Source of the DNA: Gadus chalcogrammus
Lineage: Eukaryota > Chordata > Actinopteri > Gadiformes > Gadidae
NCBI RefSeq assembly: GCF_026213295.1
Contig: NC_079413.1
Location: forward strand, 20,422,378 to 20,486,377
Direction of reading: 5' to 3'
Length of the DNA: 64,000 nucleotides
This document shows positions 7,782 to 32,315 of the stretch, piece after piece; within the stretch, counting starts at the first letter, position 1, and each line of letters begins with the position of its first letter. The position numbers and the translations under genes are program-made. The notes under the pieces are model-generated. The model did no database searches, was not told the origin of the DNA, and saw only the letters and a list, made by a program, of their open reading frames with translations.

Positions 7782-7809
<28 letters not shown>

Positions 7810-12568: not shown

Positions 12569-12611
12569 ACTACCCCATGAATTGGTGCCCGTCCGCGCCC
12601 GTTTCAACACT

Positions 12612-12827: not shown

Positions 12828-12845
12828 TAGATGTAGGCTAGATAT

Positions 12846-13627: not shown

Positions 13628-13804
13628 AAGATCATACTTTCAGGGATCGATTCGGTTACTCTAACCACGATGAAGAGAACTGATGTTCCCTTCTGAGCGC
13701 GAAGCGGGCAGTGAGTGATGATGCATTTCATCCGCTCATTGCCATTGATGACTGTTCCATGCTCTCTAGTGGAGCCTGGATGTAGGGATCATGATCAGAG
13801 TGGT
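13628..13804 (+). pseudogene. U3 snoRNA copy 3, internal deletion
   Basis: Starts normally, but about 40 nt between GGGATC and CGGTTACTC are missing, so most of the 5'-domain sequence after the first boxes is lost. Boxes C', B, C and the D region remain. Probably not functional. Confidence 0.85.
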
Positions 13805-14445
13805 TAGATGTAGGCTAGATATTGTACAAAATAACAATTAGTCATTATTCTGAGTCGTTGGCAATTTGTTACGCCGTTAGTATGTTTATTTTACTCAGTA
13901 AATATTGTGTAGGCAATCAAAAATACTGATGCATTGTAGGCTCTTGTAAACCGTTTGAAGTTACCTGCATTGCTGGTGTAACTGCTCAGGTGTATATAAT
14001 ATATAATATAATGTTTCACTTTTGATGTGATGCGAGTGATGGCCATATCAAGTAGTATAAATTGTTAATTCACTCTATGTGCATTGTGCAAGTTATCATA
14101 TTGTAGACAGTATCAAGTCATTTGCACACGCTGAATCTGGAATGACTGTACAATAACGGCACAATATAGCAACAGACTATGCACATGAATTTCCTGTGTT
14201 TAATACTTGGTAGGATTTTGAATAACATCAATAAACAGAGAGGTCGGATGTGAGTTGAACTAAAGCAGTGGGGATTGAGTTGAATTCCGACAGGCGGGGT
14301 GGTACTTTCGTCAACGGACCCCCGTGTCTCGCAAAGAGATGTGGGGACTATTTATCTCTATATCTCTTTATCATATCACGTTCACGTAGTTGTGCGTGGT
14401 ACCCGCATTGGCCCTTATGATCACTATTTTTGAACGTCACTCTAT

Positions 14446-14499
14446 ACCGTTCCATGCTCTCTAGTGGAGCCTGGCGGTAGGGATCATGATCAGAGTGGT
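14446..14499 (+). pseudogene. U3 snoRNA copy 4, 3' fragment
   Basis: Only the last about 54 nt remain (from ACCGTTCCATGC to GAGTGGT). A deletion with ACCG microhomology joins promoter-region sequence to the 3' part of the gene, removing the PSE and the 5' three-quarters of the RNA. It marks the right edge of U3 block 1. Confidence 0.85.
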
Positions 14500-15100
14500 G
14501 AGATGTAGTGGTGCCGTGATGATGCCTCATGAAACGTCAAAGCCTCGCAGCCAGATGAACCATCAAAGCGGTTCGACCTCGAAGCTACAAATCACCACTA
14601 GGGACACCTAGTGGTGAATGAAATTATGATGAAAGAAAGAGTTTCCTGTGATGATGTGATGTTTGCTTCGTACAACATCAAAACGTTTAAGAATTAAAGT
14701 CATTTCAGTGATACGTGTGAGTGTGCCGTTCATAAATATCTCCCGAGCTCATGGTAGAGAAGAAATCATTTGACAAAGATTTTAAGTCATCCCGGGCAAA
14801 ATAGATTGTCTTATAACTACAGTAGCCTACTAATAATTGTAATAATAGAACTGCATGATGACTGAGAATGAGTGTGATTAATTACATAGCCATAAAAGTG
14901 ATCTTGGAACTGGGTAGGGTCTTCTTTTTGTAAAAATTTGCCAATTGTGAACCCATATCGCGGAACAGCCCGAGATGAAGCCTCGAACGTCACACTCTAC
15001 GTCATTTCGCCCATGTGAATCCTACTCGATACGGAGCTTCGCTGGGGGAGGAGCCGAGGTACTCGACACATGCCCCGATGCCTCGACGCAAACCATAACA
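14500..15100. mobile_element. hAT-like remnant in spacer copy 1
   Basis: Begins near TAGTGGTGCC and ends near AACATCACTA, weak inverted ends of hAT type. It has many GCCTCG/CGAGGC, GCTTCG and GATGCCTC subterminal motifs at both ends, similar to the element at 2622-9561. No 8-bp target duplication found, and no transposase. The same segment recurs at 42685-43290. Confidence 0.4.
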
Positions 15101-15139
15101 TCACTACCCGAAACTGGTGGGGGGGTCTGGTGGATTTAG

Positions 15140-15343
15140 CTTGACCACGGGAGCAGTGCTGTTGTCCACAATGAACTCCTCAGAGAATCAGATGAGGTCA
15201 ATGTGACGGTCCCGGCACGAAAGACCGTGAGCGTTGATTTGACAGTGGGACGAGCAGACATCAACCTCCCCTACTCAGCCACAGTTAAAATCACATGCAT
15301 GAATGGCAGCGAGCTGGTCTTCTCAGAAAAAAATTCTGTCTAG
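15140..15343 (+). pseudogene. Aerolysin/natterin-like fragment, spacer copy 1
   Basis: One frame reads about 60 codons of beta-strand-like sequence (alternating Val/Thr, a V-x-V-x-VPAR motif, a VGRAD motif, then LPYSATVKI), ending at a TAG at 15341. This pattern resembles the pore-forming (aerolysin-type) domain of fish natterin-like and related proteins. No start, no upstream lectin-type domain and no splice context are present, so it is a detached remnant. The assignment is from motif style only. The second copy is at 43318-43530. Confidence 0.4.
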
Positions 15344-15600
15344 CTAATGCCATTATTTAACGTTTCAGCTTAGTAAATGATAATTTCAGTTCAAATATTC
15401 CATATGCTGTTAATTTTGTTTTCCAGTCCAACAGCCTGGAAGGATAATACGTTTCTGAACACTTCCAGTCAGATGCTAATCTTACTACTATAATAGCAGG
15501 CCTGTCACACCAGTTACTCAAGTTGGTCATGTGCGCATGTGCCAAGCAGCCTGCAGCTCACACACACACACAGCACACGCAAACCCATACACCGTAAGCA
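15344..15600. other. Spacer, no gene seen
   Basis: AT-rich unique sequence ending in a short (CA)n near 15556. No coding or RNA signal recognised. It is repeated at 43531-43785. Confidence 0.5.
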
Positions 15601-16317
15601 CTAGGGATGGGCACGGTAATTCGAATATTTGATTATTCGAAGATTATTCGGTAGTTGACTTTGAGATTTTTTTACATTTTTGCCTTAAGTTCATTCAATA
15701 TATTCATTAGCTATATTAATAACATATTGTTCATTAAACGTGTATACTAATGCCATTCAATACTTGGAATACTTTGCTATACCGGCAACCTCCGTTCCAG
15801 ACAAGTCTTTTCCACGGTGGGCTTGATTGTAAATCGCTTCCGCATCCGCCTATGCCCCGAGCACGTAGATATGCACAATTTTTTGAACAAGAATGACTGA
15901 GTGATGCAGTAGGTGGGCTTATGTGTTATGTTAACTGGAAATGTTTTAGACATACTGTATTTCCGTCTTACACTAAATATATTTTTGTTGATGAGGCAGG
16001 CCCATGCGCTGCAAGTGGAGTTCTGTTGATATGCAAGCCCACCAGTACTTGTACTTTTTGCTGCTGTGCTTCAGTTACTTGAATCTATTCAGTTTGTGCC
16101 TTAAATTTACTCTAATCTCATTTCAGTTTGTGCCTTAAGTATGCAATACTGTTCATTCATATTCTTGTCCAAAATGATGGTTTCGTTTGATTCAGCATAC
16201 TGATTTCGAGCTGTGTTTTTCCTTCTAAAATGCTCAATTGAACAAATTGGATTTGATTTCCGTTTTCACAGATTTATGGATGGCCCCCTGTGTGTGTGCG
16301 TGTTTGTGTGCCTGTGG
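15601..16317. other. Spacer with hAT-like start, no gene seen
   Basis: AGGGATGGGCACGGTAATTCGAATATTTG at about 15604 looks like the end of a hAT-type element. The rest is AT-rich with no frame of interest, and no matching far end was found. Up to about 16265 it is repeated in spacer copy 2. Positions 16265-16317 lead, through a GT-rich stretch, into the 7SL array. Confidence 0.4.
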
Positions 16318-16506
16318 CTTTAAATTGGACAAGAAATGACCTGAAACACTTTTCTAAAGAGAAAAAGTTAGCCTATACCTCTGCAGTAGGCTAACTAAAA
16401 CCCCTCTAGACGTCCATTTTCTTTAAAATCTTGATTGTTTACTTGCCTCAGATATGTCGGCAGGGCTGTGTCGGCGATGTCACTCAATTCCTTCCAGAAG
16501 AACCCC

Positions 16507-16805
16507 GCCGGGCACGGTGGTGCGTGCCTCTAATCCAAGTCACTGGGAGGCTGAAGTTGGCGGTTCGATTGAGCTGAGGAGCTCTGCACTGTACCGGACT
16601 ATGTTGAACGGGTGTCCATGCTAAGTTCGGTATCGATATGGTGTTTCTGGGGGAGCCTTGGACCACCAGGTCATCTAAGGAGGGGTGTACGGGCCCAGGT
16701 CGGGAACGGAGCAGGTCAAAGCCCCCGTGCTGCTCAGTAGTGGGTTTGCATCTGTGAATAGATGTTACAGTGCAGCCTTGGCAAAACTGCGGTACCTAAT
16801 AATTT
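16507..16805 (+). ncRNA. RN7SL: 7SL RNA, array copy 1
   Basis: 7SL is the RNA scaffold of the signal recognition particle, which targets ribosomes making secreted proteins to the ER. This copy has the Alu-domain start GCCGGGCACGGTGG and CTGGGAGGCTGA, and the S-domain blocks GGGTGTCCATGCTAAGTTCG, ACCACCAGG, CTAAGGAGGGGTG and AACGGAGCAGGTC. Its helix-8 apical loop reads GGAA. It lacks a good 3' T-run (TAATAATTTC), so termination may be weak. Edge copy of the array. Confidence 0.88.
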
Positions 16806-16996
16806 CTGTTCAAATTGAGGTTGACATTTTATTTCTTGTATGTGTTTGCTATGTAGGCTCTAGTTAAATTGGACAAGAAATGACCTGAAACACTTTTCTA
16901 AAGAGAAAAAGTTAGCATAAACCTCTCCGGTAGGCTAACTAAATCCCCTCTAGACGTCCATTTTCTTTAAAATCTTGATTGTTTACTTGCCTCAGA

Positions 16997-17006
16997 TATG
17001 ACGGCA
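16997..17006 (+). promoter_or_regulatory. ATF/CRE-like motif upstream of 7SL (representative)
   Basis: ATATGACGGC about 50 bp upstream of copy 2. A second half-like motif (GATGTCACTCA) is about 30 bp upstream. Human 7SL depends on an ATF/CRE-type site near -50 together with internal promoter sequence. Conserved in the array, although copies 11, 12, 21 and 22 read ATGACATCAG here. Confidence 0.35.
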
Positions 17007-17050
17007 GGGCTGTGTCGGCGATGTCACTCAATTCCTTCCAGAAGAACGCC

Positions 17051-17349
17051 GCCGGGCACGGTGGCGTGTGCCTCTAATCCAAGTCACTGGGAGGCTGAAG
17101 TTGGCGGTTCGATTGAGCTGAGGAGCTCTGCACTGTACCGGACTACGTTGAACGGGTGTCCATGCTAAGTTCGGTATCGACATGGTGGTTCAGGGGGAGC
17201 CTTGGAACACCAGGTCGTCTAAGGAGGGGTGTACGGGCCCAGGTCGGGAACGGAGCAGGTCAAATCCCCCGTGCCGCTCAGTAGTGGGTTTGCATCCGTG
17301 AATAGACGTTACAGTGCAGCCTTGGCAAAACAGCGGTACCTAATCTTTT
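17051..17349 (+). ncRNA. RN7SL: 7SL RNA, array copy 2
   Basis: Full-length, with GCCGGGCACGG start, GGAA helix-8 loop, and CTTTTC at the 3' end as a Pol III stop. It has an ATCGACATGG variant in helix 6 and the ACTACGTTGAAC variant before GGGTGTCC. Confidence 0.9.
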
Positions 17350-17594
17350 CTGTTCAAATTGAGGTTGACATTTTATTTCTTGTATGTGTTTACTATGTAG
17401 GCTATAGTTAAATCGGATAAGAAATGACCTGAAACACTTTTTTAAGGAGAAAAAGGTAGCCCAAACCTCTGCAGTAGGCTAACTAAATCCCCTCTAGATG
17501 TCCATTTTCTTTGAAATCTTGTTTGTTTACTTGCCTCAGATATGACGGCAGGGCTGTGTCGGCGATGTCACTCAATTCCTTCCAGTAGAACTCC

Positions 17595-17893
17595 GCCGGG
17601 CACGGTGGCGCGTGCCTCTAATCCAAGTCACTGGAAGGCTGAGGTTGGCGGTTTGTTTGAGCTGAGGAGCTCTGCACTGTACCGGACTATTTTGAACGGG
17701 TGTCCATGCTAAGTTCGGTATCGATATGGTGGTTCTGGGGGAGCCTTGAAACACCAGGTTGTCTAAGGAGGGGTGTACGGGCCCAGGTCGGGAACGGAGC
17801 AGGTCAAAGCCCCCGTGCCGCTCAGTAGTGGGTTTGTATCCGTGAATAGATGTTACAGTGCAGCCATGGCAAAACAGCGGTACCTAATCATTT
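17595..17893 (+). ncRNA. RN7SL: 7SL RNA, array copy 3
   Basis: Full-length with GGAA helix-8 loop. Has ACTATTTTGAAC before the S domain and only three T at the 3' end (TAATCATTTC), so termination may be inefficient. Confidence 0.88.
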
Positions 17894-18138
17894 CTGTTCA
17901 AATTGAGGTTGACATTTTATTTCTTGTATGTGTTTACTATGTAGGCTATAGTTAAGTCGGATAAGAAATGACCTGAAACACTTTTTTAAAGAGAAAAAGT
18001 TAGCCTATACCTCTGCAGTAGGCTAACTAAATCCCCTCTAGACGTCCATTTTCTTTAAAATCTTGATTGTTTACTTGCCTCAGATATGACGGCAGGGCTG
18101 TGTCGGCGACGTCACTCAATTCCTTCCAGAAGTACTCA

Positions 18139-18436
18139 GCTGGGCACGGTGGCACGTGCCTCTAATCCAAGTCACTGGGAGGCTGAGGTTGGCGGTTTGA
18201 TTGAGCTGAGGAGCTCTGCACTGTACCGGACTATGTTGAACGGGTGTCCATGCTAAGTTAGGTATCGATATGGTGGTTCTGGGGAGCCTTGGAGCACCAG
18301 GTCGTCTAAGGAGGGGTGTACGGGCCCAGGTCGGAAACGGAGCAGGTCAAAGCCCCCGTGCCGCTCAGTAGTGGGTTTGCATCCGTGAATAGACGTTAAG
18401 GTGCAGCCTCGGCAAAACAGCGGTACCTAGTGATTA
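18139..18436 (+). ncRNA. RN7SL: 7SL RNA, array copy 4
   Basis: Starts GCTGGGCACGGTGGCACG (subtype shared with copies 7, 9, 12, 14 and 17). Helix-8 loop is GAAA. One G is missing in the helix-6 loop region (CTGGGGAGCC), and the 3' end (TAGTGATTACTG) has no T-run. Possibly a weak or dead copy. Confidence 0.85.
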
Positions 18437-18675
18437 CTGTTGAAGTTCACATTTTATTTCTCGTATGTGTTTACTATGTAGGCTCTGGTTAAATTCAAAA
18501 AGAAATGACCTGAAACACTTTTCTAAAGAGAAAAAGTTAGCCTTTACCTCTGCAGTAGGCTAACTAAATCCCCTCTAGACGTCCATTTTCTTTAAAATCT
18601 TGGTTGTTTACTTGCCTCAGATATGACGGCAGGGCTGCGTCGGCGATGTCACTCAATTCCTTCCAGTAGATATCC

Positions 18676-18974
18676 GCTGGGCACGGTGGTGCGTGCCTCT
18701 AATCCAAGTCACTGGGAGGCTGAGGTTGGCGGTTCGATTGAGCTGAGGAGCTCTGCACTGTAACGGACTATGTTGAACGGGTGTCCATGCTAAGTTCGGC
18801 ATCTTTATGGTGGTTCTGGGGGAGCCTTGGACCACCAGGTCGTCTAAGGAGGGGTGTACGGGCCCAGGTCGGGAACGGAGCAGGTCAAAGCCCCCGTGCC
18901 GCTCAGTAGTGGGTTTGCATCCGGGAATAGACGTTACAGTGCAGCCTTGGCAAAACAGCGGTACCTAATCTTTT
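18676..18974 (+). ncRNA. RN7SL: 7SL RNA, array copy 5
   Basis: Full-length, GGAA helix-8 loop, T4 terminator. Differs at GGCATCTTTATGG where other copies have GGTATCGATATGG. Confidence 0.88.
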
Positions 18975-19219
18975 CTGTTCAAATTGAGGTTGACATTTTA
19001 TTTCTTGTATGTGTTTGCTATGTAGGCTATAGTTAAATTGGACAAGAAATGACCTGAAACACATTTCTAAAGAGAAAAAGTTAGCCTAAACCTCTGCAGT
19101 AGGCTAACTAAATCCCCTCTAGACGTCCATTTTCTTTGAAATCTTGTTTGTTTACTTGCCTCAGATATGACGGCAGGGCTGTGTCGGCGATGTCACTCAA
19201 TTCCTTCCCGTTAAACTCC

Positions 19220-19518
19220 GCCGGGTACGGTGGCGCGTGCCTCTAATCCAAGTCACTGGGAGGCTGAGGTTGGCGGTTCGATTGAGCTGAGGAGCTCTGC
19301 ACTGTACCGGACTATGTTGAACGGGTGTCCATGCTAAGTTCGGTTTCGATATGGTGTTTCTGGGGGCGCCTTGGACCACCAGGTCGTCTAAGGAGGGGTG
19401 TACGGGCCCAGGTCGGGAACGGAGCAGGTCAAAGCCCCCGTGCCGCTAAGTAGTGGGCTTGCATCTGTGTATAGACGTTACAGTGCAGCCTTGGCAAAAC
19501 TGCGGTACCTATTCTATT
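19220..19518 (+). ncRNA. RN7SL: 7SL RNA, array copy 6
   Basis: Starts GCCGGGTACGG. GGAA helix-8 loop. The loop region in helix 6 reads GGGGGCGCCTTGG instead of GGGGGAGCCTTGG, altering the GNAR-type loop contacted by SRP19. The 3' end (ATTCTATTCTG) lacks T4. Confidence 0.85.
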
Positions 19519-19763
19519 CTGTTCAAATTGAGGTTGACATTTTATTTCTTGTATGTGTTTGCTGTGTAGGCTCTAGTTAAATTGGACAAGAAATGACCTG
19601 AAACACTTTTCTAAAGAGAAAAAGTTAGCCTAAACCTCTCCGGTAGGCTAACTAAATCCCCTCTAGACGTCCATTTTCTTGAAAATCTTGATTGTTTACT
19701 TGCCTCATATATGACGGCAGGGCTGTGTCGGCGATGTCACTCAATTCCTTCCAGAAGTACTCA

Positions 19764-20062
19764 GCTGGGCACGGTGGCACGTTCCTCTAATCCAAGTCAC
19801 TGGGAGGCTGAGGTTGGCGGTTTGAATGAGCTGAGGAGCTCTGCACTGTACCGGACTATGTTGAACGGGTGTCCATGCTAAGTTCGGTATCGATATGGTG
19901 GTTCTGGGGGAGCCTTGGAGCACCAGGTCGTCTAAGGAGGGGTGTACGGGCCCAGGTCGGGAACGGAGCAGGTCAAAGCCCCCGTGCCGCTCAGTAGTTG
20001 GTTTGTATCCGTGAATAAATGTTACAGTGCAGCCTTGGCAAAACAGCGGTACCTAGTCATTT
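19764..20062 (+). ncRNA. RN7SL: 7SL RNA, array copy 7
   Basis: GCTGGGCACGG subtype with GGAA helix-8 loop. 3' end TAGTCATTTCTG has only three T. Confidence 0.87.
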
Positions 20063-20307
20063 CTGTTCAAATTGAGGTTGACATTTTATTTCTTGTATGT
20101 GTTTACTATGTAGGCTATAGTTAAGTCGGATAAGAAATGACCTGAAACACTTTTTTAAAGAGAAAAAGGTAGCCAAAACCTCTGCAGTAGGCTAACTAAA
20201 TCCCCTCTAGATGTCCATTTTCTTTGAAATCTTGTTTGTTTACTTGCCTCAGATATGACTGCAGGGCTGTGTCGGCGATGTCACTCAATTCCCTCCAGTA
20301 GAACTCC

Positions 20308-20606
20308 GCCGGGCACGGTTGCTTATGCCTCTAATCCAAGTCACTGGGAGGCTGAGGTTGGAGGTTCGAATGAGCTGAGGAGCGCTGCACTGTACCGGAC
20401 TATGTTGAACGGGTGTCCATGCTAAGTTCGGTATCGATATGGTGTTTCTGGGGGAGCCTTGGACCACCAGGTCGTCTAAGGAGGGGTGTACGGGCCCAGG
20501 TCGGGAACGGAGCAGGTCAAAGCCCCTGTGCCGCTCAGTAGTGGGTTTGCATCTGTGAATAGACGTTACAGTGCAGCCTTGGCAAAACTGCGGTACCTAA
20601 TCTTTT
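20308..20606 (+). ncRNA. RN7SL: 7SL RNA, array copy 8
   Basis: Full-length, GGAA loop, T4 terminator. Start reads GCCGGGCACGGTTGCTTATG, weakening Alu-domain pairing relative to GGTGGCGCGTG. Confidence 0.87.
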
Positions 20607-20851
20607 CTGTTCAAATTGAGGTTGACATTTTATTTCTTGTATGTGTTTGCTATGTAGGCTCTAGTTAAATTGGACAAGAAATGACCTGAAACACTTTTCT
20701 AAAGAGAAAAAGTTAGCCTAAACCTCTCCAGTAGGCTAACTAAATCCCCTCTAGACGTCCATTTTCTTGAAAATCTTGATTGTTTACTTGCCTCAGATAT
20801 GACGGCAGGGCTGTGTCGGCGATGTCACTCAATTCCTTCCAGAAGTACTCA

Positions 20852-21150
20852 GCTGGGCACGGTGGCACGTGCCTCTAATCCAAGTCACTGGGAGGCTGAG
20901 GTTGGCGGATCGAATGAGCTGAGGAGCTCTGCACTGTACCGGACTATGTTGAACGGGTGTCCATGCAAAGTTCGGTATCGATATGGTGGTTCTGGGGGAG
21001 GCTTGGACGACCAGGCCGTCTAAGGAGGGGTGAACGGGCACAGGTTGGAAACGGAGCAGGTCAAAGCCCCCGTGCCGCTCAGTAGTGGGTTTGCATCCGT
21101 GAATAGATGTTACAGTGCAGCCTTGGCAAAACAGCGGTACCTAATCTATT
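20852..21150 (+). ncRNA. RN7SL: 7SL RNA, array copy 9
   Basis: GCTGGGCACGG subtype. Reads GTGAACGGGCACAGGTTGGAAACGG, so the helix-8 loop is GAAA with a C-to-T change next to the closing pair. Lacks T4 at the 3' end (AATCTATTCTG). Confidence 0.86.
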
Positions 21151-21395
21151 CTGTTCAAATTGAGGTTGACATTTTATTTCTTGTATGTGTTTACTATGTA
21201 GGCTGTAGTTAAGTCGGATAAGAAATTACCTGAAACACTTTTCTAAAGAGCAAAAGATAGCCTAAACCTCTGCAGTAGGCTAACTAAATCCCCTCTAGAC
21301 GTCCATTTTCTTTAAAATCTTGATTGTTTACTTGCCTCAGATATGACGGCAGGGCTGTGTCGGCGATGTCACTCAAATCCTTCCTGTAGAACTCC

Positions 21396-21694
21396 GACGG
21401 GTACGGTGGCGCGTGCCTCTTATCCAAGTCACTGGGAGGCTGAGGTTGGCAGTTCGAATTAGCTGAGGAGCTCTGCCCTGTACCGGACTATGTTGAACGG
21501 GTGTCCATGCTAAGTTTGGTATCGAAATGGTGGTTCTGGGGGAGCCTTGGACCACCAGGTCGTCTAAGGAGGGGTGTACGGGCCCAGGTCGGAAACGGAG
21601 TAGGTCAAAGCCCCCGTGCCGCTCAGTAGTGGGTTTGCATCCGTGAATAGATGTTACAGTGCAGCCTCGGCAAAACAGCGGTACCTAATCTTTT
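21396..21694 (+). ncRNA. RN7SL: 7SL RNA, array copy 10
   Basis: Starts GACGGGTACGG. GAAA helix-8 loop, T4 terminator. The conserved AGCAGG of the SRP54-binding loop reads AGTAGG (also in copies 16 and 20), a change in one of the most conserved parts of SRP RNA. Confidence 0.86.
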
Positions 21695-21931
21695 CTGTTG
21701 AAGTTCACATTTTATTTCTTGTACGTTTACTATGTAGGCTCTAGTTAAATTGGATAAGAAATGACCTGAGACACTTTTTTAAAGAGAAAGAGTTAGCCAA
21801 AACCTCTGCAGTAGGCTAAATAAATCCCCTCTAGACGTCCATTTTCTTTAAAATCTTGATTGTTTACTTGCCTCAGATATGACATCAGGGCTGTGTCGGC
21901 GATGTCACTCAATTCCTTCCAGAAGAACTCC

Positions 21932-22232
21932 GCCGGGCACGGTGGCGTGTGCCTCTAATCCAAGTCACTGGGAGGCTGAGGTTGGCGGTTCGATTGAGCT
22001 GAGGAGCTCTGCACTGTACCGGACTATGTTGAACGGGTGTCCATGCTAAGTTCGGTATCGATATGGTGGTTCTGGGGGAGTCTTGGACCACCAGGTCGCC
22101 TAAGGAGGGGTGTTTGCGGGCCCAGGTCGAGAACGGAGCAGGTCAAAGCCCCCGTGCCGCTCAGTAGTGGGTTTGCATCCGTGAATTGATGTTACAGTGC
22201 AGCCTTGGCAAAACAGCGGTACCTAATCTTTT
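21932..22232 (+). ncRNA. RN7SL: 7SL RNA, array copy 11
   Basis: 301 nt because of a 2-nt gain (GGTGTTTGCGGGCCC in place of GGTGTACGGGCCC). Helix-8 loop reads AGAA, not a GNRA loop. T4 terminator present. The upstream CRE-like motif reads ATGACATCAG. Confidence 0.86.
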
Positions 22233-22471
22233 CTGTTGAGGTTGACATTTTATTTCTTGCATGTGTTTACTATGTAGGCTGTAGTTGAGTCGGATAAGAA
22301 ATTACCTGAAACACTTTTCTAAAGAGAAAAAGTTAGCCTAAACCTCTCCGGTAGGCTAACTAAATCCCCTCTAGACGTCCATTTTCTTGAAAATCTTGAT
22401 TGTTTACTTGCCTCAGATATGACATCAGGGCTGTGTCGGCGATGTCACTCAATTCCTTCCAGAAGTACTCA

Positions 22472-22772
22472 GCTGGGCAAGGTGGCACGTGCCTCTAATC
22501 CAAGTCACTGGGAGGCTGAGGTTGGCGGTTTGAATGAGCTGAGGAGCTCTGCACTGTACCGGACTATGTTGAACGGGTGTCCATGCTAAGTTCGGTATCG
22601 ATATGGTGGTTCTGGGGGAGTCTTGGACCACCAGGTCGCCTAAGGAGGGGTGTTTGCGGGCCCAGGTCGAGAACGGAGCAGGTCAAAGCCCCCGTGCCGC
22701 TCAGTAGTGGGTTTGCATCCGTGAATTGATGTTACAGTGCAGCCTTGGCAAAACAGCGGTACCTAATCTTTT
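22472..22772 (+). ncRNA. RN7SL: 7SL RNA, array copy 12
   Basis: GCTGGGCAAGG start, 2-nt gain in the S domain, AGAA helix-8 loop, T4 terminator. The 3' half is nearly identical to that of copy 11, as if the copies were homogenised in segments. Confidence 0.86.
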
Positions 22773-23017
22773 CTGTTCAAATTGAGGTTAACATTTTATT
22801 TCTTGTATGTGTTTGCTATGTAGGCTCTAGTTAATTTGGACAAGAAATGACCTGAAACACTTTTCTAAAGAGAAAAAGTTAGCCAAAACCTCAGCAGTAG
22901 GCTAACTAAATCCCCTCTAGATGTCCATTTTCGTTGAAATCTTGTTTGTTTACTTGCCTCAGATATGACGGCAGGGCTGTGTCGGCGATGTCACTCAATT
23001 CCTTCCAGAAGTACTCC

Positions 23018-23316
23018 GCCGGGCACGGTGGCGCGTGCCTCTAATCCAAGTCACTGGGAGGGTGAGGTTGGCGGTTCGATTGAGCTCAGGAGCTCTGCAC
23101 TGTACCGGGCTATGTTGAACGGGTGTCCATGCTAAGTTCGGTATCGATATGGTGGTTCTGGGGGAGCCTTGGACCACCAGGTCGTCTAAGGAGGGGTGTA
23201 CGGGCCCAGGTCGGAAACGGAGCAGGTCAAAGCCCCCGTGCCTCTCAGTAGTGGGTTTGCATCCGCGAATAGACGTTACAGTGCAGCCTTGGCAAAACAG
23301 CGGTACCTAATCTTTT
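23018..23316 (+). ncRNA. RN7SL: 7SL RNA, array copy 13
   Basis: GCCGGGCACGG start, GAAA helix-8 loop, T4 terminator. First unit of a three-unit group repeated as copies 16-18. Confidence 0.89.
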
Positions 23317-23555
23317 CTGTTGAGGTTGACATTTTATTTCTTGCATGTGTTTACTATGTAGGCTGTAGTTGAGTCGGATAAGAAATTACCTGAAACACTT
23401 TTCTAAAGAGAAAAAGTTAGCCTAAACCTCTCCGGTAGGCTAACTAAATCCCCTCTAGACGTCCATTTTCTTGAAAATCTTGATTGTTTACTTGCCTCAG
23501 ATATGACGGCAGGGCTGTGTCGGCGATGTCACTCAATTCCTTCCAGAAGTACTCA

Positions 23556-23854
23556 GCTGGGCACGGTGGCACGTGCCTCTAATCCAAGTCACTGGGAGGC
23601 TGAGGTTGGCGGTTTGAATGAGCTGAGGAGCTCTGCACTGTACCGGACTATGTTGAACGGGTGTCCATGCTAAGTTCGGTATCGATATGGTGGTTCTGGG
23701 GGAGCCTTGGAGCACCAGGTCGTCTAAGGAGGGGTGTACGGGCACAGGTCGGAAACGGAGCAGGTCAAAGCCGCCGTGCCGCCCAGTAGTGGGTTTGCAT
23801 CCGTGAATAGACGTTACAGTGCAGCCTTGGCAAAACAGCGGTACCTAATGATTA
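23556..23854 (+). ncRNA. RN7SL: 7SL RNA, array copy 14
   Basis: GCTGGGCACGG subtype, GAAA loop, GGGCACAGG variant of GGGCCCAGG. 3' end AATGATTACTG lacks a T-run. Nearly identical to copy 17. Confidence 0.87.
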
Positions 23855-24093
23855 CTGTTGAAGTTCACATTTTATTTCTTGTATGTGTTTACTATGTAGG
23901 CTGTAGTTAAGTCGGATAAGAAATTACCTGAAACACTTTTCTAAAGAGAAAAAGATAGCCTAAACCTCTGCAGTAGGCTAACTAAATCCCCTCTAGACGT
24001 CCATTTTCTTGAAAATCTTGATTGTTTACTTGCCTCAGATATGACGGCAGGGCTGTCTCGGCGATGTCACTCAAATCCTTCCAGTAGAACTCC

Positions 24094-24394
24094 GCCGGGT
24101 ACGGTGGCGCGTGCCTCTAATCCAATTCACTGGGAGGCTGAGGTTGGCGGTTTGATTGAGCTGATGAGCTCTGCACTGAACCGGACTATGTTGAACGGGT
24201 GTCCATGCTAAGTTCGGTATCGATATGGTGGTTCTGGGGGAGCCTTGGACCACCAGGTCGCCTAAGGAGGGGTGTTTGCGGGCCCAGGTCGGGAACGGAG
24301 CAGGTCAAAGCCCCCGTGCCGCTCAGTAGTGGGTTTGCATCCGTGAATTGATGTTACAGTGCAGCCTTGGCAAAACAGCGGTACCTAATCTTTT
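24094..24394 (+). ncRNA. RN7SL: 7SL RNA, array copy 15
   Basis: GCCGGGTACGG start, 2-nt gain in the S domain, GGAA loop, T4 terminator. Matches copy 18 with few differences (GAGCTGATGAGCTC here). Confidence 0.87.
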
Positions 24395-24639
24395 CTGTTC
24401 AAATTGAGGTTGACATTTTATTTCTTGTATGTGTTTGCTATGTAGGCTCTAGTTAATTTGGACAAGAAATGACCTGAAACACTTTTCTAAAGAGAAAAAG
24501 TTAGCCAAAACCTCAGCAGTAGGCTAACTAAATCCCCTCTAGATGTCCATTTTCGTTGAAATCTTGTTTGTTTACTTGCCTCAGATATGACGGCAGGGCT
24601 GTGTCGGCGATGTCACTCAATTCCTTCCAGAAGTACTCC

Positions 24640-24938
24640 GCCGGGCACGGTGGCGCGTGCCTCTAATCCAAGTCACTGGGAGGCTGAGGTTGGCGGTTCG
24701 ATTGAGCTCAGGAGCTCTGCACTGTACCGGGCTATGTTGAACGGGTGTCCATGCTAAGTTCGGTATCGATATGGTGGTTCTGGGGGAGCCTTGGACCACC
24801 AGGTCGTCTAAGGAGGGGTGTACGGGCACAGGTCGGAAACGGAGTAGGTCAAAGCCGCCGTGCCGCTCAGTAGTGGGTTTGCATCCGCGAATAGACGTTA
24901 CAGTGCAGCCTTGGCAAAACAGCGGTACCTAATCTTTT
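24640..24938 (+). ncRNA. RN7SL: 7SL RNA, array copy 16
   Basis: GCCGGGCACGG start, GAAA loop, T4 terminator. Differs from copy 13 mainly by AGTAGG in the SRP54 loop and GGGCACAGG. Confidence 0.88.
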
Positions 24939-25177
24939 CTGTTGAGGTTGACATTTTATTTCTTGCATGTGTTTACTATGTAGGCTGTAGTTGAGTCGGA
25001 TAAGAAATTACCTGAAACACTTTTCTAAAGAGAAAAAGTTAGCCTAAACCTCTCCGGTAGGCTAACTAAATCCCCTCTAGACGTCCATTTTCTTGAAAAT
25101 CTTGATTGTTTACTTGCCTCAGATATGACGGCAGGGCTGTGTCGGCGATGTCACTCAATTCCTTCCAGAAGTACTCA

Positions 25178-25476
25178 GCTGGGCACGGTGGCACGTGCCT
25201 CTAATCCAAGTCACTGGGAGGCTGAGGTTGGCGGTTTGAATGAGCTGAGGAGCTCTGCACTGTACCGGACTATGTTGAACGGGTGTCCATGCTAAGTTCG
25301 GTATCGATATGGTGGTTCTGGGGGAGCCTTGGAGCACCAGGTCGTCTAAGGAGGGGTGTACGGGCACAGGTCGGAAACGGAGCAGGTCAAAGCCGCCGTG
25401 CCGCTCAGTAGTGGTCTTGCATCTGTGAATAGACGTTACAGTGCAGCCTTGGCAAAACAGCGGTACCTAATGATTA
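25178..25476 (+). ncRNA. RN7SL: 7SL RNA, array copy 17
   Basis: Near-copy of copy 14: GCTGGGCACGG subtype, GAAA loop, no T-run. The 3' domain reads AGTGGTCTTGCATC rather than AGTGGGTTTGCATC. Confidence 0.86.
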
Positions 25477-25715
25477 CTGTTGAAGTTCACATTTTATTTC
25501 TTGTATGTGTTTACTATGTAGGCTGTAGTTAAGTCGGATAAGAAATTACCTGAAACACTTTTCTAAAGAGAAAAAGATAGCCTAAACCTCTGCAGTAGGC
25601 TAACTAAATCCCCTCTAGACGTCCATTTTCTTGAAAATCTTGATTGTTTACTTGCCTCAGATATGACGGCAGGGCTGTCTCGGCGATGTCACTCAAATCC
25701 TTCCAGTAGAACTCC

Positions 25716-26016
25716 GCCGGGTACGGTGGTGCGTGCCTCTAATCCAAGTCACTGGGAGGCTGAGGTAGGCGGTTCGATTGAGCTGAGGAGCTCTGCACTG
25801 AACCGGACTATGTTGAACGAGTGTCCATGCTAAGTTCGGTATCGATATGGTGGTTCTGGGGGAGCCTTGGACCACCAGGTCGCCTAAGGAGGGGTGTTTG
25901 CGGGCCCAGGTCGGGAACGGAGCAGGTCAAAGCCCCCGTGCCGCTCAGTAGTGGGTTTGCATCCGTGAATAGATGTTACAGTGCAGCCTTGGCAAAACAG
26001 CGGTACCTAATATTTT
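25716..26016 (+). ncRNA. RN7SL: 7SL RNA, array copy 18
   Basis: GCCGGGTACGGTGGTGCG start, 2-nt gain, GGAA loop, T4 terminator (AATATTTTC). GAACGAGTGTCC instead of GAACGGGTGTCC. Confidence 0.87.
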
Positions 26017-26261
26017 CTGTTCAAATTGAGGTTGACATTTTATTTCTTGTATGTGTTTGCTATGTAGGCTCTAGTTAATTTGGACAAGAAATGACCTGAA
26101 ACACTTTTCTAAAGAGAAAAAGTTAGCCAAAACCTCAGCAGTAGGCTAACTAAATCCCCTCTAGACGTCCATTTTCTTTAAAATCTTGATTGTTTACTTG
26201 TCTCAGATATGACGGCAGGGCTGTCTCGGCGATGTCACTCAAATCCTTCCAGTAGAACTCC

Positions 26262-26562
26262 GCCGGGTACGGTGGCGCGTGCCTCTAATCCAAGTCGCTG
26301 GGAGGCTGAGGTTGGCGGTTCGATTGAGCTGAGGAGCTCTGCACTGTACCGGTCTATGTTGAACGGGTGTCCATGCTAAGTTCGGTATCGATATGGTGGT
26401 TCTGGGGGAGCCTTGGACCACCAGGTCGCCTAAGGAGGGGTGTTTGCGGGCCCAGGTCGAGAACGGAGCAGGTCAAAGCCCCCGTGCCGCTCAGTAGTGG
26501 GTTTGCATCCGTGAATAGATGTTGCAGTGCAGCCTTGGCAAAACAGCGGTAGGTAATCTTTT
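26262..26562 (+). ncRNA. RN7SL: 7SL RNA, array copy 19
   Basis: GCCGGGTACGG start, 2-nt gain, AGAA (non-GNRA) helix-8 loop. The 3' end reads CGGTAGGTAATCTTTT instead of CGGTACCTAATCTTTT. Confidence 0.85.
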
Positions 26563-26807
26563 CTGTTCAAATTGAGGTTGACATTTTATTTCTTGTATGT
26601 GTTTGCTATGTAGGCTCTAGTTAATTTGGACAAGAAATGACCTGAAACACTTTTCTAAAGAGAAAAAGTTAGCCAAAACCACAGCAGTAGGCTAACTAAA
26701 TCCCCTCTAGATGTCCATTTTCGTTGAAATCTTGTTTGTTTACTTGCCTCAGATATGACGGCAGGGCTGTGTCGGCGATGTCACTCAAATCCTTCCAGAA
26801 GTATTCC

Positions 26808-27106
26808 GCCGGGCACGGTGGTGCGTGCCTCTAATCCAAGTCACTGAGAGGCTGAGGTTGGCGGTTCGATTGAGCTCAGGAGCTCTGCACTGTACCGGAC
26901 TATGTTGAACGGGTGTCCATCCTAAGTTCGGTAGCGATATGGTGGTTCTGGGGGAGCCTTGGACCACCAGGTCGTCTAAGGAGGGGTGTACGGGCCCAGG
27001 TCGGAAACGGAGTAGGTCAAAGCCCCCGTGCCGCTCAGTAGTGGGTTTGCATCTGCGAATAGATGTTACAGTGCAGCCTCGGCAAAACAGCGGTACCTAA
27101 TCTTTT
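26808..27106 (+). ncRNA. RN7SL: 7SL RNA, array copy 20
   Basis: GCCGGGCACGG start, GAAA loop, AGTAGG in the SRP54 loop, GTCCATCCTAAG variant. T4 terminator. The spacer after it is nearly identical to that after copy 10. Confidence 0.86.
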
Positions 27107-27343
27107 CTGTTGAAGTTCACATTTTATTTCTTGTACGTTTACTATGTAGGCTCTAGTTAAATTGGATAAGAAATGACCTGAGACACTTTTTTAAAGAGAA
27201 AGAGTTAGCCAAAACCTCTGCAGTAGGCTAAATAAATCCCCTCTAGACGTCCATTTTCTTTAAAATCTTGATTGTTTACTTGCCTCAGATATGACATCAG
27301 GGCTGTGTCGGCGATGTCACTCAATTCCTTCCAGAAGAACTCC

Positions 27344-27643
27344 GCCGGGTACGGTGGCGTGTGCCTCTAATCCAAGTCACTGGGAGGCTGAGGTTGGCGG
27401 TTCGATTGAGCTGAGGAGCTCTGCACTGTACCGGACTATGTTGAACGGGTGTCCATGCTAAGTTCGGTATCGATATGGTGGTTCTGGGGGAGCCTTGGAC
27501 CACCAGGTCGCCTAAGGAGGGGTGTTTGCGGGCCCAGGTCGGGAACGGAGCAGGTCAAAGCCCACGTGCCGCTCAGTAGTGGTTTGCATCCGTGAATAGA
27601 TGTTACAGTGCAGCCTTGGCAAAACAGCGGTACCTAATCTTTT
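27344..27643 (+). ncRNA. RN7SL: 7SL RNA, array copy 21
   Basis: GCCGGGTACGG start, 2-nt gain and 1-nt loss (AGTGGTTTGC), GGAA loop, T4 terminator. Upstream motif ATGACATCAG, as in copy 11. Confidence 0.87.
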
Positions 27644-27888
27644 CTGTTCAAATTGAGGTTGACAGTTTATTTCTTGTATGTGTTTGCTATGTAGGCTCTA
27701 GTTAATTTGGACAAGAAATGACCTGAAACACTTTTCTAAAGAGAAAAAGTTAGCCAAAACCTAAGCAGTAGGCTAACTAAATCCCCTCTAGATGTCCATT
27801 TTCGTTGAAATCTTGTTTGTTTACTTGCCTCAGATATGACATCAGGGCTGTGTCGGCGATGTCACTCAATTCCTTCCAGAAGAACTCC

Positions 27889-28187
27889 GCCGGGCACGGT
27901 GGCGCGTGCCTCTAATCCAAGTCACTGGGAGGCTGAGGATGGCGGTTCGATTGAGCTGAGAAGCTCTGCACTGTACCGGACTATGTTGAACGGGTGTCCA
28001 TGCTAAGTACGTTATCGATATGGTGGTTCTGGGGGAGCCTTGGAACACCTGTTCGTCTAAGGAGGGGTGTACGGGCCCAGGTCGGGAACGGAGCAGGTCA
28101 AAGCCCCCGTGCCGCTCAGTAGTTGGTTTGTATCCGTGAATAGATGTTACAGTGCAGCCTTGGCAAAACAGCGGTACCTAATCTTTT
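27889..28187 (+). ncRNA. RN7SL: 7SL RNA, array copy 22
   Basis: GCCGGGCACGG start, GGAA loop, T4 terminator. Has TAAGTACGTTATCG in helix 6 and AACACCTGTTCGTC in place of CCACCAGGTCGTC, which would disturb helix 6/8 pairing. Confidence 0.86.
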
Positions 28188-28432
28188 CTGTTCAAATTGA
28201 GGTTGACATTTTATTTCTTGTATGTGTTTACTATGTAGGCTATAGTTAAGTCGGATAAGAAATGACCTGAAACACTTTTTTAAAGAGAAAAAGGTAGCCA
28301 AAACCTCTGCAGTAGGCTAACTAAATCCCCTCTAGATGTCCATTTTCTTTGAAATCTTGTTTGTTTACTTGCCTCAGATATGACGGCAGGGCTGTGTCGG
28401 CGATGTCACTCAATTCCTTCCAGTAGAACTCC

Positions 28433-28731
28433 GCCGGGCACGGTTGCGCGTGCCTCTAATCCAAGTCACTGGGAGGCTGAGGTTGGCGGTTCGATTGAGC
28501 TGAGGAGCTCTGCACTGTACCGGACTATGTTGAACGGGTGTCCATGCTAAGTTCGGTATCGATATGGTGGTTCTGGGGGAGCCTTGGACCACCAGGTCGT
28601 CTAAGGAGGGGTGTACGGGCCCAGGTCGGAAACGGAGCAGGTCAAAGCCCCCGTGCCGCTCAGTAGTGGGTTTGCATCCGTGAATAGATGTTACAGTGCA
28701 GCCTTGGCAAAACAGCGGTACCTAATCTTTT
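28433..28731 (+). ncRNA. RN7SL: 7SL RNA, array copy 23
   Basis: GCCGGGCACGGTTGCGCG start, GAAA loop, AGCAGG intact, T4 terminator. One of the copies closest to the array consensus and a good candidate for an active gene. Confidence 0.9.
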
Positions 28732-28975
28732 CTGTTCAAATTGAGGTTGACATTTTATTTCTTGTATGTGTTTACTATGTAGGCTATAGTTTAGTCGGAT
28801 AAGAAATTACCTGAAACACTTTTTTAAAGAGAAATAGTAGCCAAAACCTCTGCAGTAGGCTAACTAAATCCCCTCTAGATGTCCATTTTCTTTGAAATCT
28901 TGTTTGTTTACTTGCCTCAGATATGACTGCAGGGCTGTGTCGGCGATGTCACTCAATTCCCTCCAGTAGAACTCC

Positions 28976-29276
28976 GCCGGGCACGGTTGCTTGTGCCTCT
29001 AATCCAAGTCACTGGGAGGTTGAGGTTGGCGGTTCGATTGAGCTGAGGAGCTCTGCACTGTACCGGACTATGTTGAACGGGTGGCCATGCTAAGTTCGGT
29101 ATCGATATGGTGGTTCTGGGGGAGCCTTGGACCACCAGGTCGCCTAAGGAGGGGTGTTTGCGGGCCCAGGTCGGGAACGGAGCAGGTCAAAGCCCCCGTG
29201 CCGCTCAGTAGTGGGTTTGCATCCGTGAATAGATGTTACAGTGCAGCCTTGGCAAAACAGCGGTACCTAATCTTTT
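28976..29276 (+). ncRNA. RN7SL: 7SL RNA, array copy 24
   Basis: Last copy before U3 block 2. GCCGGGCACGGTTGCTTG start, 2-nt gain, GGAA loop, GGGTGGCCATGC in place of GGGTGTCCATGC, T4 terminator. Confidence 0.87.
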
Positions 29277-29988
29277 CTGTTCAAATTGAGGTTGACATTT
29301 TATTTCTTGTATGTGATTACTCTGTAGTCTCTGGTTAAATTGGACAAGAAATGACCTGAAACACTTTTCTAAAGAGAAAAAGTTAGCCTAAACCTCTGCA
29401 GTAGGCTAACTAAATCCCCTCTAGACGTCCATTTTCTTTAAAATCTTGATTGTTTACTTGCCTCAGATATGACGGCAGGGCTGTGTCGGCGATGTCACTC
29501 AATTCAAATATTGTAGACCGTATCAAGTCATTTGCACACGCTGAATCTGGAATGTCTGTACAATAACGGCAAAATATAGCAGTAGACTATGAACATGAAT
29601 TTCCTGTGTTTAATACTTGGTAGGAGGTCGGATGTGAGTTGAACTAAAGCAGTGGGGATTGAGTTGAATTCCAACAGGCGGGGTGGTACTTTCGTCAACG
29701 GACCCACGTGTCTCGCAAAGAGATGTGGGGACTATTTATCTCTATATCTCTTTATCATATCACTCCGTTAACGTAGTTGTGCGTGGTACCCGTATTGGCC
29801 CTTATGATCACTAGTTTTGAACGTCACTCTATACCGATGTTTGAGTTCAGTTTCAATAAACTAAGATTTGTATAAGTGCCATCCGTTATTTTTACATGAG
29901 CTGAAATATTGTGAAAGTTCTACCTCACAACCACCAGTGAGAAAGACTACTCCGTGAATTGGTGCCCGTCCGCGCCCGTTTCAACACT

Positions 29989-30204
29989 AAGATCATACTT
30001 TCAGGGATCATTTCTATAGTCTTTGACTTGAGAAATATCGTACGAAAGTGATCGGTTACTCTAACCACGATGAAGAGAACTGATGTTCCCTTCTGAGCGC
30101 GAAGCGGGCAGTGAGTGATGATGCATTTCATCCGCTCCTTGCCATTGATGACCGTTCCATGCTCTCTAGTGGAGCCTGGAGGTAGGGATCATGATCAGAG
30201 TGGT
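29989..30204 (+). ncRNA. SNORD3: U3 snoRNA gene, copy 5
   Basis: Complete 216-nt copy with all boxes, including GAGCGCGAAGCGGGC (box B) and the CAGA-type box D. Its upstream PSE-like region differs slightly (GTGAGAAAGACTACTCCGTG). Confidence 0.88.
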
Positions 30205-30285
30205 TAGATGTAGGCTAGATATTGTACAAAATAACAATTAGTTATTATTCTGAGTCGTTGGCGTTTTGTTACATCGTCAGTATGT

Positions 30286-31272
30286 TTATCTTACATAGTA
30301 AGATAGTAGTAGTAGTGTGGATGGTTGGGGGGTAGTGTGTTTTTCCAGGAGTCTGACTGCTTGGGGGAAAAAACTGCTTGTCATCCTCTGGGTTTTGGCC
30401 CTTAGGCTTTGGTACCGCCTCCCTGACGGCAGTAGCTCAAACAGTTTCTGGTTGGGGTGGCTGGGGTCCCCAATGATTCGGAGGGCCTTCCTGACACACC
30501 GGGCCTTGTAGGTTTCCTGGATGGAGGGAAGCTCACATCCGCTGATCCTCTCAGCTGTCCGCACTACCCTTTGCAGCATTTTGCGGCTTTGGGCAGTGCA
30601 GTTCCCGTACCAGGCAGTGATGCATCCAGTCAATATGCTCTCCGTTGTGCCTCTGAAGAAGGCCCCCAGGATCTTGGGCCCCACGCCAAACTTTTTCAGA
30701 CGCCTAAGGTGAAATAGGCGCCGCTGTGCTTTTTTCACCACCTGGTTGGTGTGCTCCTCCCAGGTGAGGTCTCTGGTGATGTGGACTCCCAGGAACTTAA
30801 TGCTGTGTACCCTCTCCACAGCAGACCCATTGATGGAGATGGGGTGTTGAATCTGTCTCTTCTTCCTGAAGTCCACTACGAGCTCCTTGGTCTTATCGGT
30901 GTTGAGAATGAGGTTGTTGTCCTGGCTGTACTGAGCCAGACAGTCGACCTCGCTCCTATAGGCCGTCTCATCACCATCAGTGATCAGCCCCATGACTGTC
31001 GTGTGATCGGCGAACTTGATCACTGCATTGGATCCGTGTGTAGCCACGCAGTCGTGGGTGTATAGGGAGTAGAGGAGGGGGCTTAGGACACAGCCCTGGG
31101 GGGCTCCTGTGCTGATGGTCAGAGGGGCGGAGATCTTAGGACCCATCTTCACCACCTGTTTTCGATCCGTCAGGAAGTCAAGGATCCAGTTGCATAGGCT
31201 GGGATCAATGCCTAGGTCCCTGAGCTTCCTGTCGAGTCTGGAGGGGACTATTGTGTTGAATGCCGAACTATA
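30286..31272 (-). pseudogene. Non-LTR retrotransposon reverse transcriptase fragment (L2/CR1 type)
   Basis: A frame of 289 codons from 31155 down to 30286 extends upstream without stop to about 31272 ([13 protein letters not shown], then [15 protein letters not shown]). It covers reverse-transcriptase blocks [19 protein letters not shown], the active-site block [33 protein letters not shown], and a C-terminal part with [15 protein letters not shown] and [10 protein letters not shown]. This layout is typical of fish L2/CR1/Rex-type LINEs. The catalytic FADD reads FADH, so the enzyme would be dead. The endonuclease and the start of the reverse transcriptase are missing (5' truncation). Confidence 0.85.
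30300..31272 (-). mobile_element. 5'-truncated LINE insertion in U3 satellite
   Basis: Breaks a U3 unit at TTACATAGTAAGATAG (30300); the satellite resumes near 31272 with a short repeated stretch (GTGGTTAGATGT ... GTGGTTATATGTAGG). The TAGTAG repeat at its 3' end is the likely tail. Truncation at the 5' end is usual for LINEs. Confidence 0.8.
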
Positions 31273-32099
31273 AGTGGTTAGATGTGGTACAGAGTGGTTA
31301 TATGTAGGCTAGATATTGAACAAAATAACAATTAGTCATTATTCTGAGTCGTTGGCAATTTGTTACGCCGTTAGTATGTTTATTTTACTTAGTAAAGATT
31401 GTGTAGGCAATCAAAAATACTGATGCAGTGTAGGCTCTTGTAAACCGTTTGAAGTTACCTGCATTGCTGGTGTAACTGCTCAGGTGTATATAATATATAT
31501 AAATAATGTTTCACTTTTGATGTGATGCGAGTGATGGCCATATCAAGTAGTATAAATTGTTAATTCACTCTATGTGCATTGTGCAGGTTATCATATTGTA
31601 GACAGTATCAAGTCATTTGCACACGCTGAATCTGGAATGTCTGTACAATAACGGCACAATATAGCAGTAGCCTATGCACATGAATTTCCTGTGTTTAATA
31701 CTTGGTAGGATTTTGAATAATATAAATATACAGAGAGGTCGGATGTGAGTTGAACTAAAGCAGTGGGGATTGAGTTGAATTCCGACAGGCGGGGTGGTAC
31801 TTTCGTCAACGGACCCCCGTGTCTCGCAAAGAGATGTGGGGACTATTTATCTCTATATCTCTTTATCATATCACTCCGTTAACGTAGTTGTGCGTGGTAC
31901 CCGTATTGGCCCTTATGATCACTAGTTTTGAACGTCACTCTATACCGATGTTTGAGTTCAGTTTCAATTAACTAAGATTTGTATCAGTGCCATCCGTTAT
32001 TTTTACATGAGCTGAAATATTGTGAAAGTTCTACCTCACAACCACCAGTGAGAAGGACTACCCCATGAATTGGTGCCCGTCCGCGCCCGTTTCAACACT

Positions 32100-32315
32100 A
32101 AGATCATACTTTCAGGGATCATTTCTATAGTCTTTGACTTGAGAATTATCGTACGAAAGTGATCGGTTACTCTAACCACGATGAAGAGAACTGATGTTCC
32201 CTTCTGAGCGCGAAGCGGGCAGTGAGTGATGATGCATTTCATCCGCTCCTTGCCATTGATGACCGTTCCATGCTCTCTAGTGGAGCCTGGAGGTAGGGAT
32301 CATGATCAGAGTGGT
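32100..32315 (+). ncRNA. SNORD3: U3 snoRNA gene, copy 6
   Basis: Complete 216-nt copy. One change (GAGAATTATCG instead of GAGAAATATCG) in the variable 5'-domain stem region; boxes A'/A, C', B, C and D region are as in the consensus. Confidence 0.88.

What the first reader, a model, noticed from the sequence alone, without database searches (positions are those of the whole stretch)
16318..29505. Tandem array of 24 full-length 7SL (SRP RNA) genes
Each 544-bp unit holds an entire 7SL RNA: Alu-domain start, S-domain blocks GGGTGTCCATGCTAAGTTCG and AACGGAGCAGGTC, and often a T4 Pol III stop. Vertebrates are usually described with a few functional dispersed 7SL genes plus pseudogenes. A head-to-tail cluster with its own spacer, on the pattern of 5S rDNA, is unusual and to my knowledge little described in fish.
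Basis: partly seen in the sequence, partly recalled or inferred. Interest (0 to 1): 0.88.

Follow-up and report, generated by a model that had tools for sequence, protein, structure and literature searches.

The report
Tandem 7SL RNA genes beside U3
In what is probably a bony-fish genome, 24 full-length genes for the RNA core of the protein-export machine lie head to tail between two clusters of U3 RNA genes, an arrangement well known for 5S ribosomal RNA genes but for which the papers searched here showed no vertebrate example.

Summary
Rfam's Metazoa_SRP model finds exactly 24 full-length hits (model 1-299, 201-246 bits, cut-off 70), all on the + strand, 536-546 bp apart, at 16507-29276; spacer homology extends the array to about 16318-29505. 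All 24 keep a CRE-like upstream motif, 22 keep the box B core, 16 have T4 at the 3' end and the other 8 have the next T4 about 20 bp downstream. Copies are diverged (mean identity 94.6% in genes, 91.8% in spacers), so this is no simple assembly duplication. The array consensus evolved under SRP structure selection (18 doubly changed, still-paired pairs against 5.4 expected), but differences between copies show no covariation and private mutations break pairs about as often as chance. I read it as a real, probably active multigene array holding good and weakened copies; 28433-28731 is the cleanest. U3 snoRNA genes (15 in the window) flank it on both sides, which the finding did not mention. The RNA is ordinary; the organisation is notable. 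No other fish genome could be compared, and expression is untested.

The parts
16318..29505 (+). whole 7SL tandem array: 24 units of 536-546 bp, each spacer plus gene
16507..16805 (+). 7SL copy u01; no T4 at 3' end (TTT only), next T4 at unit position 321
17051..17349 (+). 7SL copy u02; T4 at 3' end
17595..17893 (+). 7SL copy u03; no T4 at 3' end, but an internal T4 at gene position 96 that could stop Pol III early
18139..18431 (+). 7SL copy u04; no T4 at 3' end; upstream motif is GACGTCAC
18676..18974 (+). 7SL copy u05; T4 at 3' end
19220..19518 (+). 7SL copy u06; no T4 at 3' end
19764..20062 (+). 7SL copy u07; no T4 at 3' end
20308..20606 (+). 7SL copy u08; T4 at 3' end; box A and box B each carry a change
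20852..21150 (+). 7SL copy u09; no T4 at 3' end
21396..21694 (+). 7SL copy u10; T4 at 3' end; box B change
21932..22232 (+). 7SL copy u11; T4; helix 8 TT-insertion subtype
22472..22772 (+). 7SL copy u12; T4; TT-insertion subtype
23018..23316 (+). 7SL copy u13; T4
23556..23852 (+). 7SL copy u14; no T4 at 3' end
24094..24394 (+). 7SL copy u15; T4; TT-insertion subtype
24640..24938 (+). 7SL copy u16; T4
25178..25474 (+). 7SL copy u17; no T4 at 3' end
25716..26016 (+). 7SL copy u18; T4; TT-insertion subtype
26262..26562 (+). 7SL copy u19; T4; TT-insertion subtype
26808..27106 (+). 7SL copy u20; T4
27344..27643 (+). 7SL copy u21; T4; TT-insertion subtype; no second T4 close downstream
27889..28187 (+). 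7SL copy u22; T4
28433..28731 (+). 7SL copy u23: best score (245.6 bits), 101 of 101 consensus pairs, no private variant, T4
28976..29276 (+). 7SL copy u24; T4; TT-insertion subtype
22472..25715 (+). two successive three-unit blocks (u12-u14 and u15-u17) whose three spacers differ at 1, 0 and 0 alignment positions: a recent block duplication
16477..16484 (+). CRE-like GATGTCAC at -30 to -23 of u01; the same motif (T or C at the third position) stands upstream of all 24 copies and once more in the last spacer
   Evidence: (25 matches)
9562..14449 (+). left U3 snoRNA array (hits at 10394, 12612, 13628), ending before the 7SL array
29508..42616 (+). right U3 snoRNA array (hits at 29989, 32100, 33116, 34132, 35148, 37646, 38662, 39678, 40667, 41680), unit about 1016 bp; starts within 3 bp of the 7SL spacer's end
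14446..16261 (+). single-copy flank between the left U3 array and the 7SL array; its duplicate follows the right U3 array at 42631-45415 (2.6% and 1.7% diverged in its two parts)

Best explanation
This is a genuine multigene array of SRP RNA (7SL) genes. Inferred working: each unit is its own RNA polymerase III gene, with the internal box A/box B promoter helped by a conserved CRE-like upstream motif, ending at a T-run, so many copies raise the dose of SRP RNA. Inferred history: the array grows and is partly homogenised by unequal crossing-over and gene conversion of one to several units; because copies are redundant, single copies are free to pick up structure-breaking changes, so a core of good copies stands among weakened ones. 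Shown: 24 full-length copies, conserved promoter-like elements, block duplication, ancestral structure conservation, and the U3 neighbours. Not shown: transcription, and entry of the RNA into SRP.
For: 24 full-length Metazoa_SRP hits, 201-246 bits against a cut-off of 70. Upstream motif in 24 of 24; box B core AGCTCTGCAC in 22 of 24; box A GGCACGGTGG or GGTACGGTGG in 20 of 24. T4 at the 3' end in 16 of 24, and in the 8 others the next T4 begins at unit position 314-321. Array consensus against Rfam consensus: 18 of 120 pairs changed on both sides and still paired, 5.4 expected, 0 of 5000 randomisations reached 18. Pairing 94-101 of 101 per copy. Spacers s12/s15, s13/s16 and s14/s17 differ at 1, 0 and 0 positions, which marks a recent three-unit duplication.
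Against: Between copies there is no covariation: all five measures are at or below the shuffled mean. Private variants break pairs about as often as chance (41 break, 20 unpaired, 10 keep of 71; expected 38.7, 22.8, 9.5). Private variants are not rarer in genes than in spacers (71 of 299 against 33 of 241 sites), so no selection on single copies is visible. CpG sites decay in genes (42 of 864 site-cells changed by transition against 78 of 6310 at other sites), as in methylated DNA. The minimum-energy fold of the best copy is not exceptional (z -1.59; 16 of 200 shuffles fold as well). 8 pairs of the u23 alignment changed on both sides and do not pair. No expression data.
Confidence: 0.72

Rival explanations
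1. A decaying satellite: a former 7SL gene was amplified with its spacer, and most or all copies are now silent or unused while the working 7SL genes lie elsewhere.
For: Private mutations hit paired sites as chance would, no covariation between copies, CpG decay, 8 of 24 copies lack T4 at the 3' end and u03 has an internal T4, spacing and sequence dynamics are like those of a satellite.
Against: Every copy is still full length with 94-101 of 101 pairs and the upstream motif is kept in all 24. Among variants shared by 4 or more copies, 7 keep pairing and 4 break it, against 10 and 41 among private ones, which suggests that harmful variants spread less; that contrast is small and partly carried by C-to-T changes, which leave G-U pairs.
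Confidence: 0.2
2. Assembly artefact: one or a few 7SL genes expanded in silico.
For: Tandem repeats are error-prone to assemble, and transversions are not fewer than transitions among differences (23 to 48 for gene singletons; 14 to 29 in the two flank pieces; 29 to 31 in the palindrome arms), which could mean residual sequence errors.
Against: No two units are identical: the closest gene pair differs at 4 positions and mean gene identity is 94.6%. Diagnostic variants recur in blocks. Low transition share is seen across the window and is not special to the array.
Confidence: 0.06
3. A repeat derived from retrocopies or a 7SL-derived SINE.
For: 7SL-derived SINEs exist in primates, rodents and hagfish (PMC7245038 and PMC10886601, passages seen).
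Against: Copies carry the same 5' flank with its upstream motif and the same 3' flank, all in one orientation at a regular period; no poly-A tail was seen at the 3' ends printed. Full S domain present.
Confidence: 0.02

Closest known systems
Vertebrate 7SL (SRP RNA) genes, e.g. human RN7SL1, RN7SL2 and RN7SL3
   Same: Same RNA: full Alu and S domains, boxes A and B, T-run end.
   Different: Humans have three loci for 7SL (PMC7073466, passage); here 24 copies stand in one head-to-tail array with a common spacer.
5S rDNA and snRNA gene arrays of fishes, including the maternal 5S, U1 and U6 genes of zebrafish chromosome 4
   Same: Short tandem or clustered units of small structural RNA genes; in zebrafish maternal-specific sets exist (PMC11075544, passages).
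   Different: That paper's main text holds no '7sl', 'srp' or 'signal recognition'; 7SL as the repeated gene is the new element here. A link to maternal expression is only a guess.
Linked multi-copy small RNA genes, e.g. U3 with U5 in Euglena
   Same: Multi-copy U3 genes standing near another small RNA gene (PMC2784804, passages).
   Different: In Euglena no tandem U3 linkage was found (same passages); here U3 and 7SL form separate tandem arrays side by side rather than one mixed unit.

Membership tests
Metazoan SRP RNA (RF00017) | Score above the family cut-off over the whole model | tested here: met
   24 of 24 hits full length, 201-246 bits against 70
Metazoan SRP RNA (RF00017) | Conserved secondary structure with compensatory changes | tested here: met
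   For the array consensus/u23 against the Rfam consensus: 18 doubly changed paired positions, 5.4 expected (the alignment was fitted to the model, which favours pairing). Between copies: no covariation
Metazoan SRP RNA (RF00017) | GNRA loop of helix 8 and GGAG loop of helix 6 (loop identities recalled) | tested here: met
   Helix 8 loop, read with the structure line: GAAA in 9, GGAA in 12, AGAA in 3 of 24, so GNRA in 21; helix 6 loop GGAG in 23 of 24, GGCG in u06 (read by eye)
Pol III 7SL gene | Box A and box B | tested here: met
   Box A GGCACGGTGG 14, GGTACGGTGG 6, GGCACGGTTG 3, GGCAAGGTGG 1; box B core AGCTCTGCAC 22 of 24. Box positions after PMC7245038 (passage)
Pol III 7SL gene | T-run terminator | tested here: inconclusive
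   T4 at the 3' end in 16 of 24; the 8 others have one about 20 bp on, which would give a longer RNA
Pol III 7SL gene | Transcription by Pol III and assembly into SRP | not testable with these tools
   no expression or binding data
Tandemly repeated small-RNA multigene family (5S type) | Head-to-tail units with a shared spacer | tested here: met
   23 intervals of 536-546 bp, spacer mean identity 91.8%
Tandemly repeated small-RNA multigene family (5S type) | Concerted evolution: neighbours more alike than distant units, or block duplication | tested here: met
   Near-identical three-unit blocks and spacer pair s10/s20 with 0 differences; mean identity by distance is otherwise flat apart from a rise at a distance of 3 units

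The most novel reading that the evidence does not exclude
A dedicated small-RNA supply locus: 7SL and U3 arrays side by side form a high-dose, perhaps oocyte-specific block, and its two linked 7SL subtypes (7 of 24 copies with a TT insertion in helix 8 plus a linked C at alignment column 168, against 17 without) give SRP particles with different helix 8 loops in egg and body.
Probability: 0.1. Interest if true: 0.75.

Novelty: new variant of a known kind. Interest (0 to 1): 0.45.

Why it matters
If active, it shows that a vertebrate can organise its SRP RNA genes as 5S rRNA genes are organised, next to U3 genes, so that dosage, homogenisation and decay of a central secretion RNA can be studied copy by copy. 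The mixed quality of the copies makes it testable which variants the cell admits into SRP. The annotation lesson is practical: such arrays would be counted as '7SL repeats' or pseudogenes by repeat maskers.

Tried and rejected
Transcription-associated mutagenesis: genes carry more private variants than spacers (71 of 299 against 33 of 241 sites, p 0.004; base-stratified odds ratio 1.8, p 0.018), but with another partition of the same units p is 0.04, leave-one-out p runs from 0.003 to 0.15, and the apparent U3 parallel (32 of 216 against 30 of 600 sites, p 1.6e-5) came from one rearranged copy at 39678; without it 15 of 216 against 28 of 600, p 0.21. Not claimed.

Relatives elsewhere: two exact patterns gave 0 viral contigs each; a 16-base pattern gave 25 bacterial or archaeal stretches, which are chance: none of the 20 alignments printed exceeds 29 bp. 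The host's own genome could not be searched. Fold of the best copy: not better than shuffles at a convincing level. The bacterial promoter/terminator scan of 16318-17350 found nothing and does not apply to Pol III genes. No tRNA gene in the window. Pfam found nothing in 4 of the 6 reading frames tried.
Full report
Observation. A covariance search of the whole window against Rfam gives 24 Metazoa_SRP hits, all spanning the model from 1 to 299, all on the + strand, at 16507-29276, with 201.4 to 245.6 bits where the family cut-off is 70 (the permissive search adds none). Units repeat every 536-546 bp. The first spacer is homologous to the others from about 16318, and the last runs to about 29505, where a U3 unit takes over at 29508.

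Anatomy of a unit. The gene starts GCCGGGC, with box A (GGCACGGTGG in 14 copies, GGTACGGTGG in 6, GGCACGGTTG in 3, GGCAAGGTGG in 1) and a box B whose core AGCTCTGCAC is kept in 22 of 24; the hagfish gene has AGCTCTGCGCT and the human AGTTCTGGGCT (PMC7245038, passages seen). A CRE-like GATGTCAC (GACGTCAC in u04) stands at -30 to -23 in all 24, and once more in the last spacer without a gene behind it. I recall a CRE-type element upstream of human 7SL; that comes from no call. 16 of 24 copies end in T4; the other 8 (u01, u03, u04, u06, u07, u09, u14, u17) have the next T4 starting at unit position 314-321, so they might make a slightly longer RNA. u03 has an internal T4 at position 96.

Structure. 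Of 120 model pairs, 101 pair in the array consensus; single copies keep 94 to 101, and only u23 (28433-28731) keeps all. Compared with the Rfam consensus, u23 has 18 pairs changed on both sides and still paired, against 5.4 expected and at most 13 in 5000 randomisations; 8 pairs changed on both sides do not pair. The alignment was fitted to the model, which leans towards pairing. So the lineage leading to this array was under structure selection. Between the copies the picture is different: 96.2% of cells pair, but every measure of covariation is at or below its shuffled mean, and 71 private variants split 41 break, 10 keep, 20 unpaired, near the 38.7, 9.5 and 22.8 expected. Variants shared by 4 or more copies split 4 break, 7 keep, 4 unpaired; those shared by 2-3 split 13, 4, 6. 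The minimum-energy fold of u23 is long and rod-like but only weakly better than shuffles (z -1.59).

How the array evolves. Mean identity is 94.6% between genes and 91.8% between spacers. Two adjacent three-unit blocks, u12-u14 and u15-u17, have spacers differing at 1, 0 and 0 positions, while their genes differ at 10, 5 and 4; spacers s10 and s20 are identical while u10 and u20 differ at 16. That fits block duplication by unequal crossing-over with further exchange. Seven copies share both a TT insertion in helix 8 and a C at alignment column 168, a second subtype. CpG sites decay faster than others in genes and spacers, as under methylation.

Neighbours. The window also holds 15 U3 snoRNA hits on the same strand, 14 of them in or near two tandem arrays of about 1016-bp units or beside the left array, and one at 61476. 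The arrays at 9562-14449 and 29508-42616 stand left and right of the 7SL array. A 22-base motif starting 67 bp upstream is exact in 15 of 15; it resembles the proximal element of snRNA promoters, by recall. Three U3 copies (2449, 13628, 39678) are deleted or altered. The flank after the left U3 array (14446-16261) recurs after the right one (42631-45415) at 2.6% and 1.7% divergence, so a segment was duplicated and the 7SL array lies at the junction.

Host. The reverse transcriptase frame at 30286-31308 has 52-68% identity to the 120 relatives listed; named ones are teleosts apart from one Xenopus. The species is unknown.

Reading. The RNAs are ordinary 7SL. The array is most likely a Pol III multigene family whose copies are redundant, so that good and weakened copies stand together; activity is inferred, not shown. 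Ten paper searches were made; the seven with 7SL or SRP RNA as a term listed no vertebrate 7SL array by title or abstract start, and passages of nine papers were read, none whole. Zebrafish keeps maternal 5S, U1 and U6 genes in a block of chromosome 4 (PMC11075544, passages), which prompts, but does not support, a maternal role here.

Noticed in passing
2952-9104: A 6.2-kb palindrome with no spacer (centre near 6028); arms differ at 2.0% of aligned positions, plus 102 gap columns. Could be a real inverted duplication or a fold-back assembly error.
   Followed up: partly
9562-14449, 29508-42616, also 2449 and 61476: 15 U3 snoRNA hits, mostly in two tandem arrays of about 1016-bp units with an upstream motif exact in 15 of 15.
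   Followed up: partly
10795-11991 and 35549-37031: Two different inserts stand at the same position of a U3 unit, both beginning GGGCCC after CTCAG and ending before CAG, with inverted ends: two unlike MITE-like elements in the same target.
   Followed up: partly
43934-44893: hAT-type insertion with a transposase dimerisation domain (Pfam PF05699), flanked by GTGTATAC on both sides; the duplicate flank near 15740 is the empty site, so it entered after the segment duplication.
   Followed up: yes
1-1647: Satellite of a 47-bp unit, 35 copies, directly followed by U3-unit sequence at 1647.
   Followed up: no
30286-31308: LINE reverse transcriptase on the - strand, inside a unit of the right U3 array.
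   Followed up: partly
14446-14508: The single-copy flank begins with what looks like the 3' end of a U3 gene, as if the left array ended inside a U3 copy (by eye).
   Followed up: no
57179-57441: Tandem repeat of 111 bp, 2.4 copies, GC-rich; related stretch at 57862-58211.
   Followed up: no
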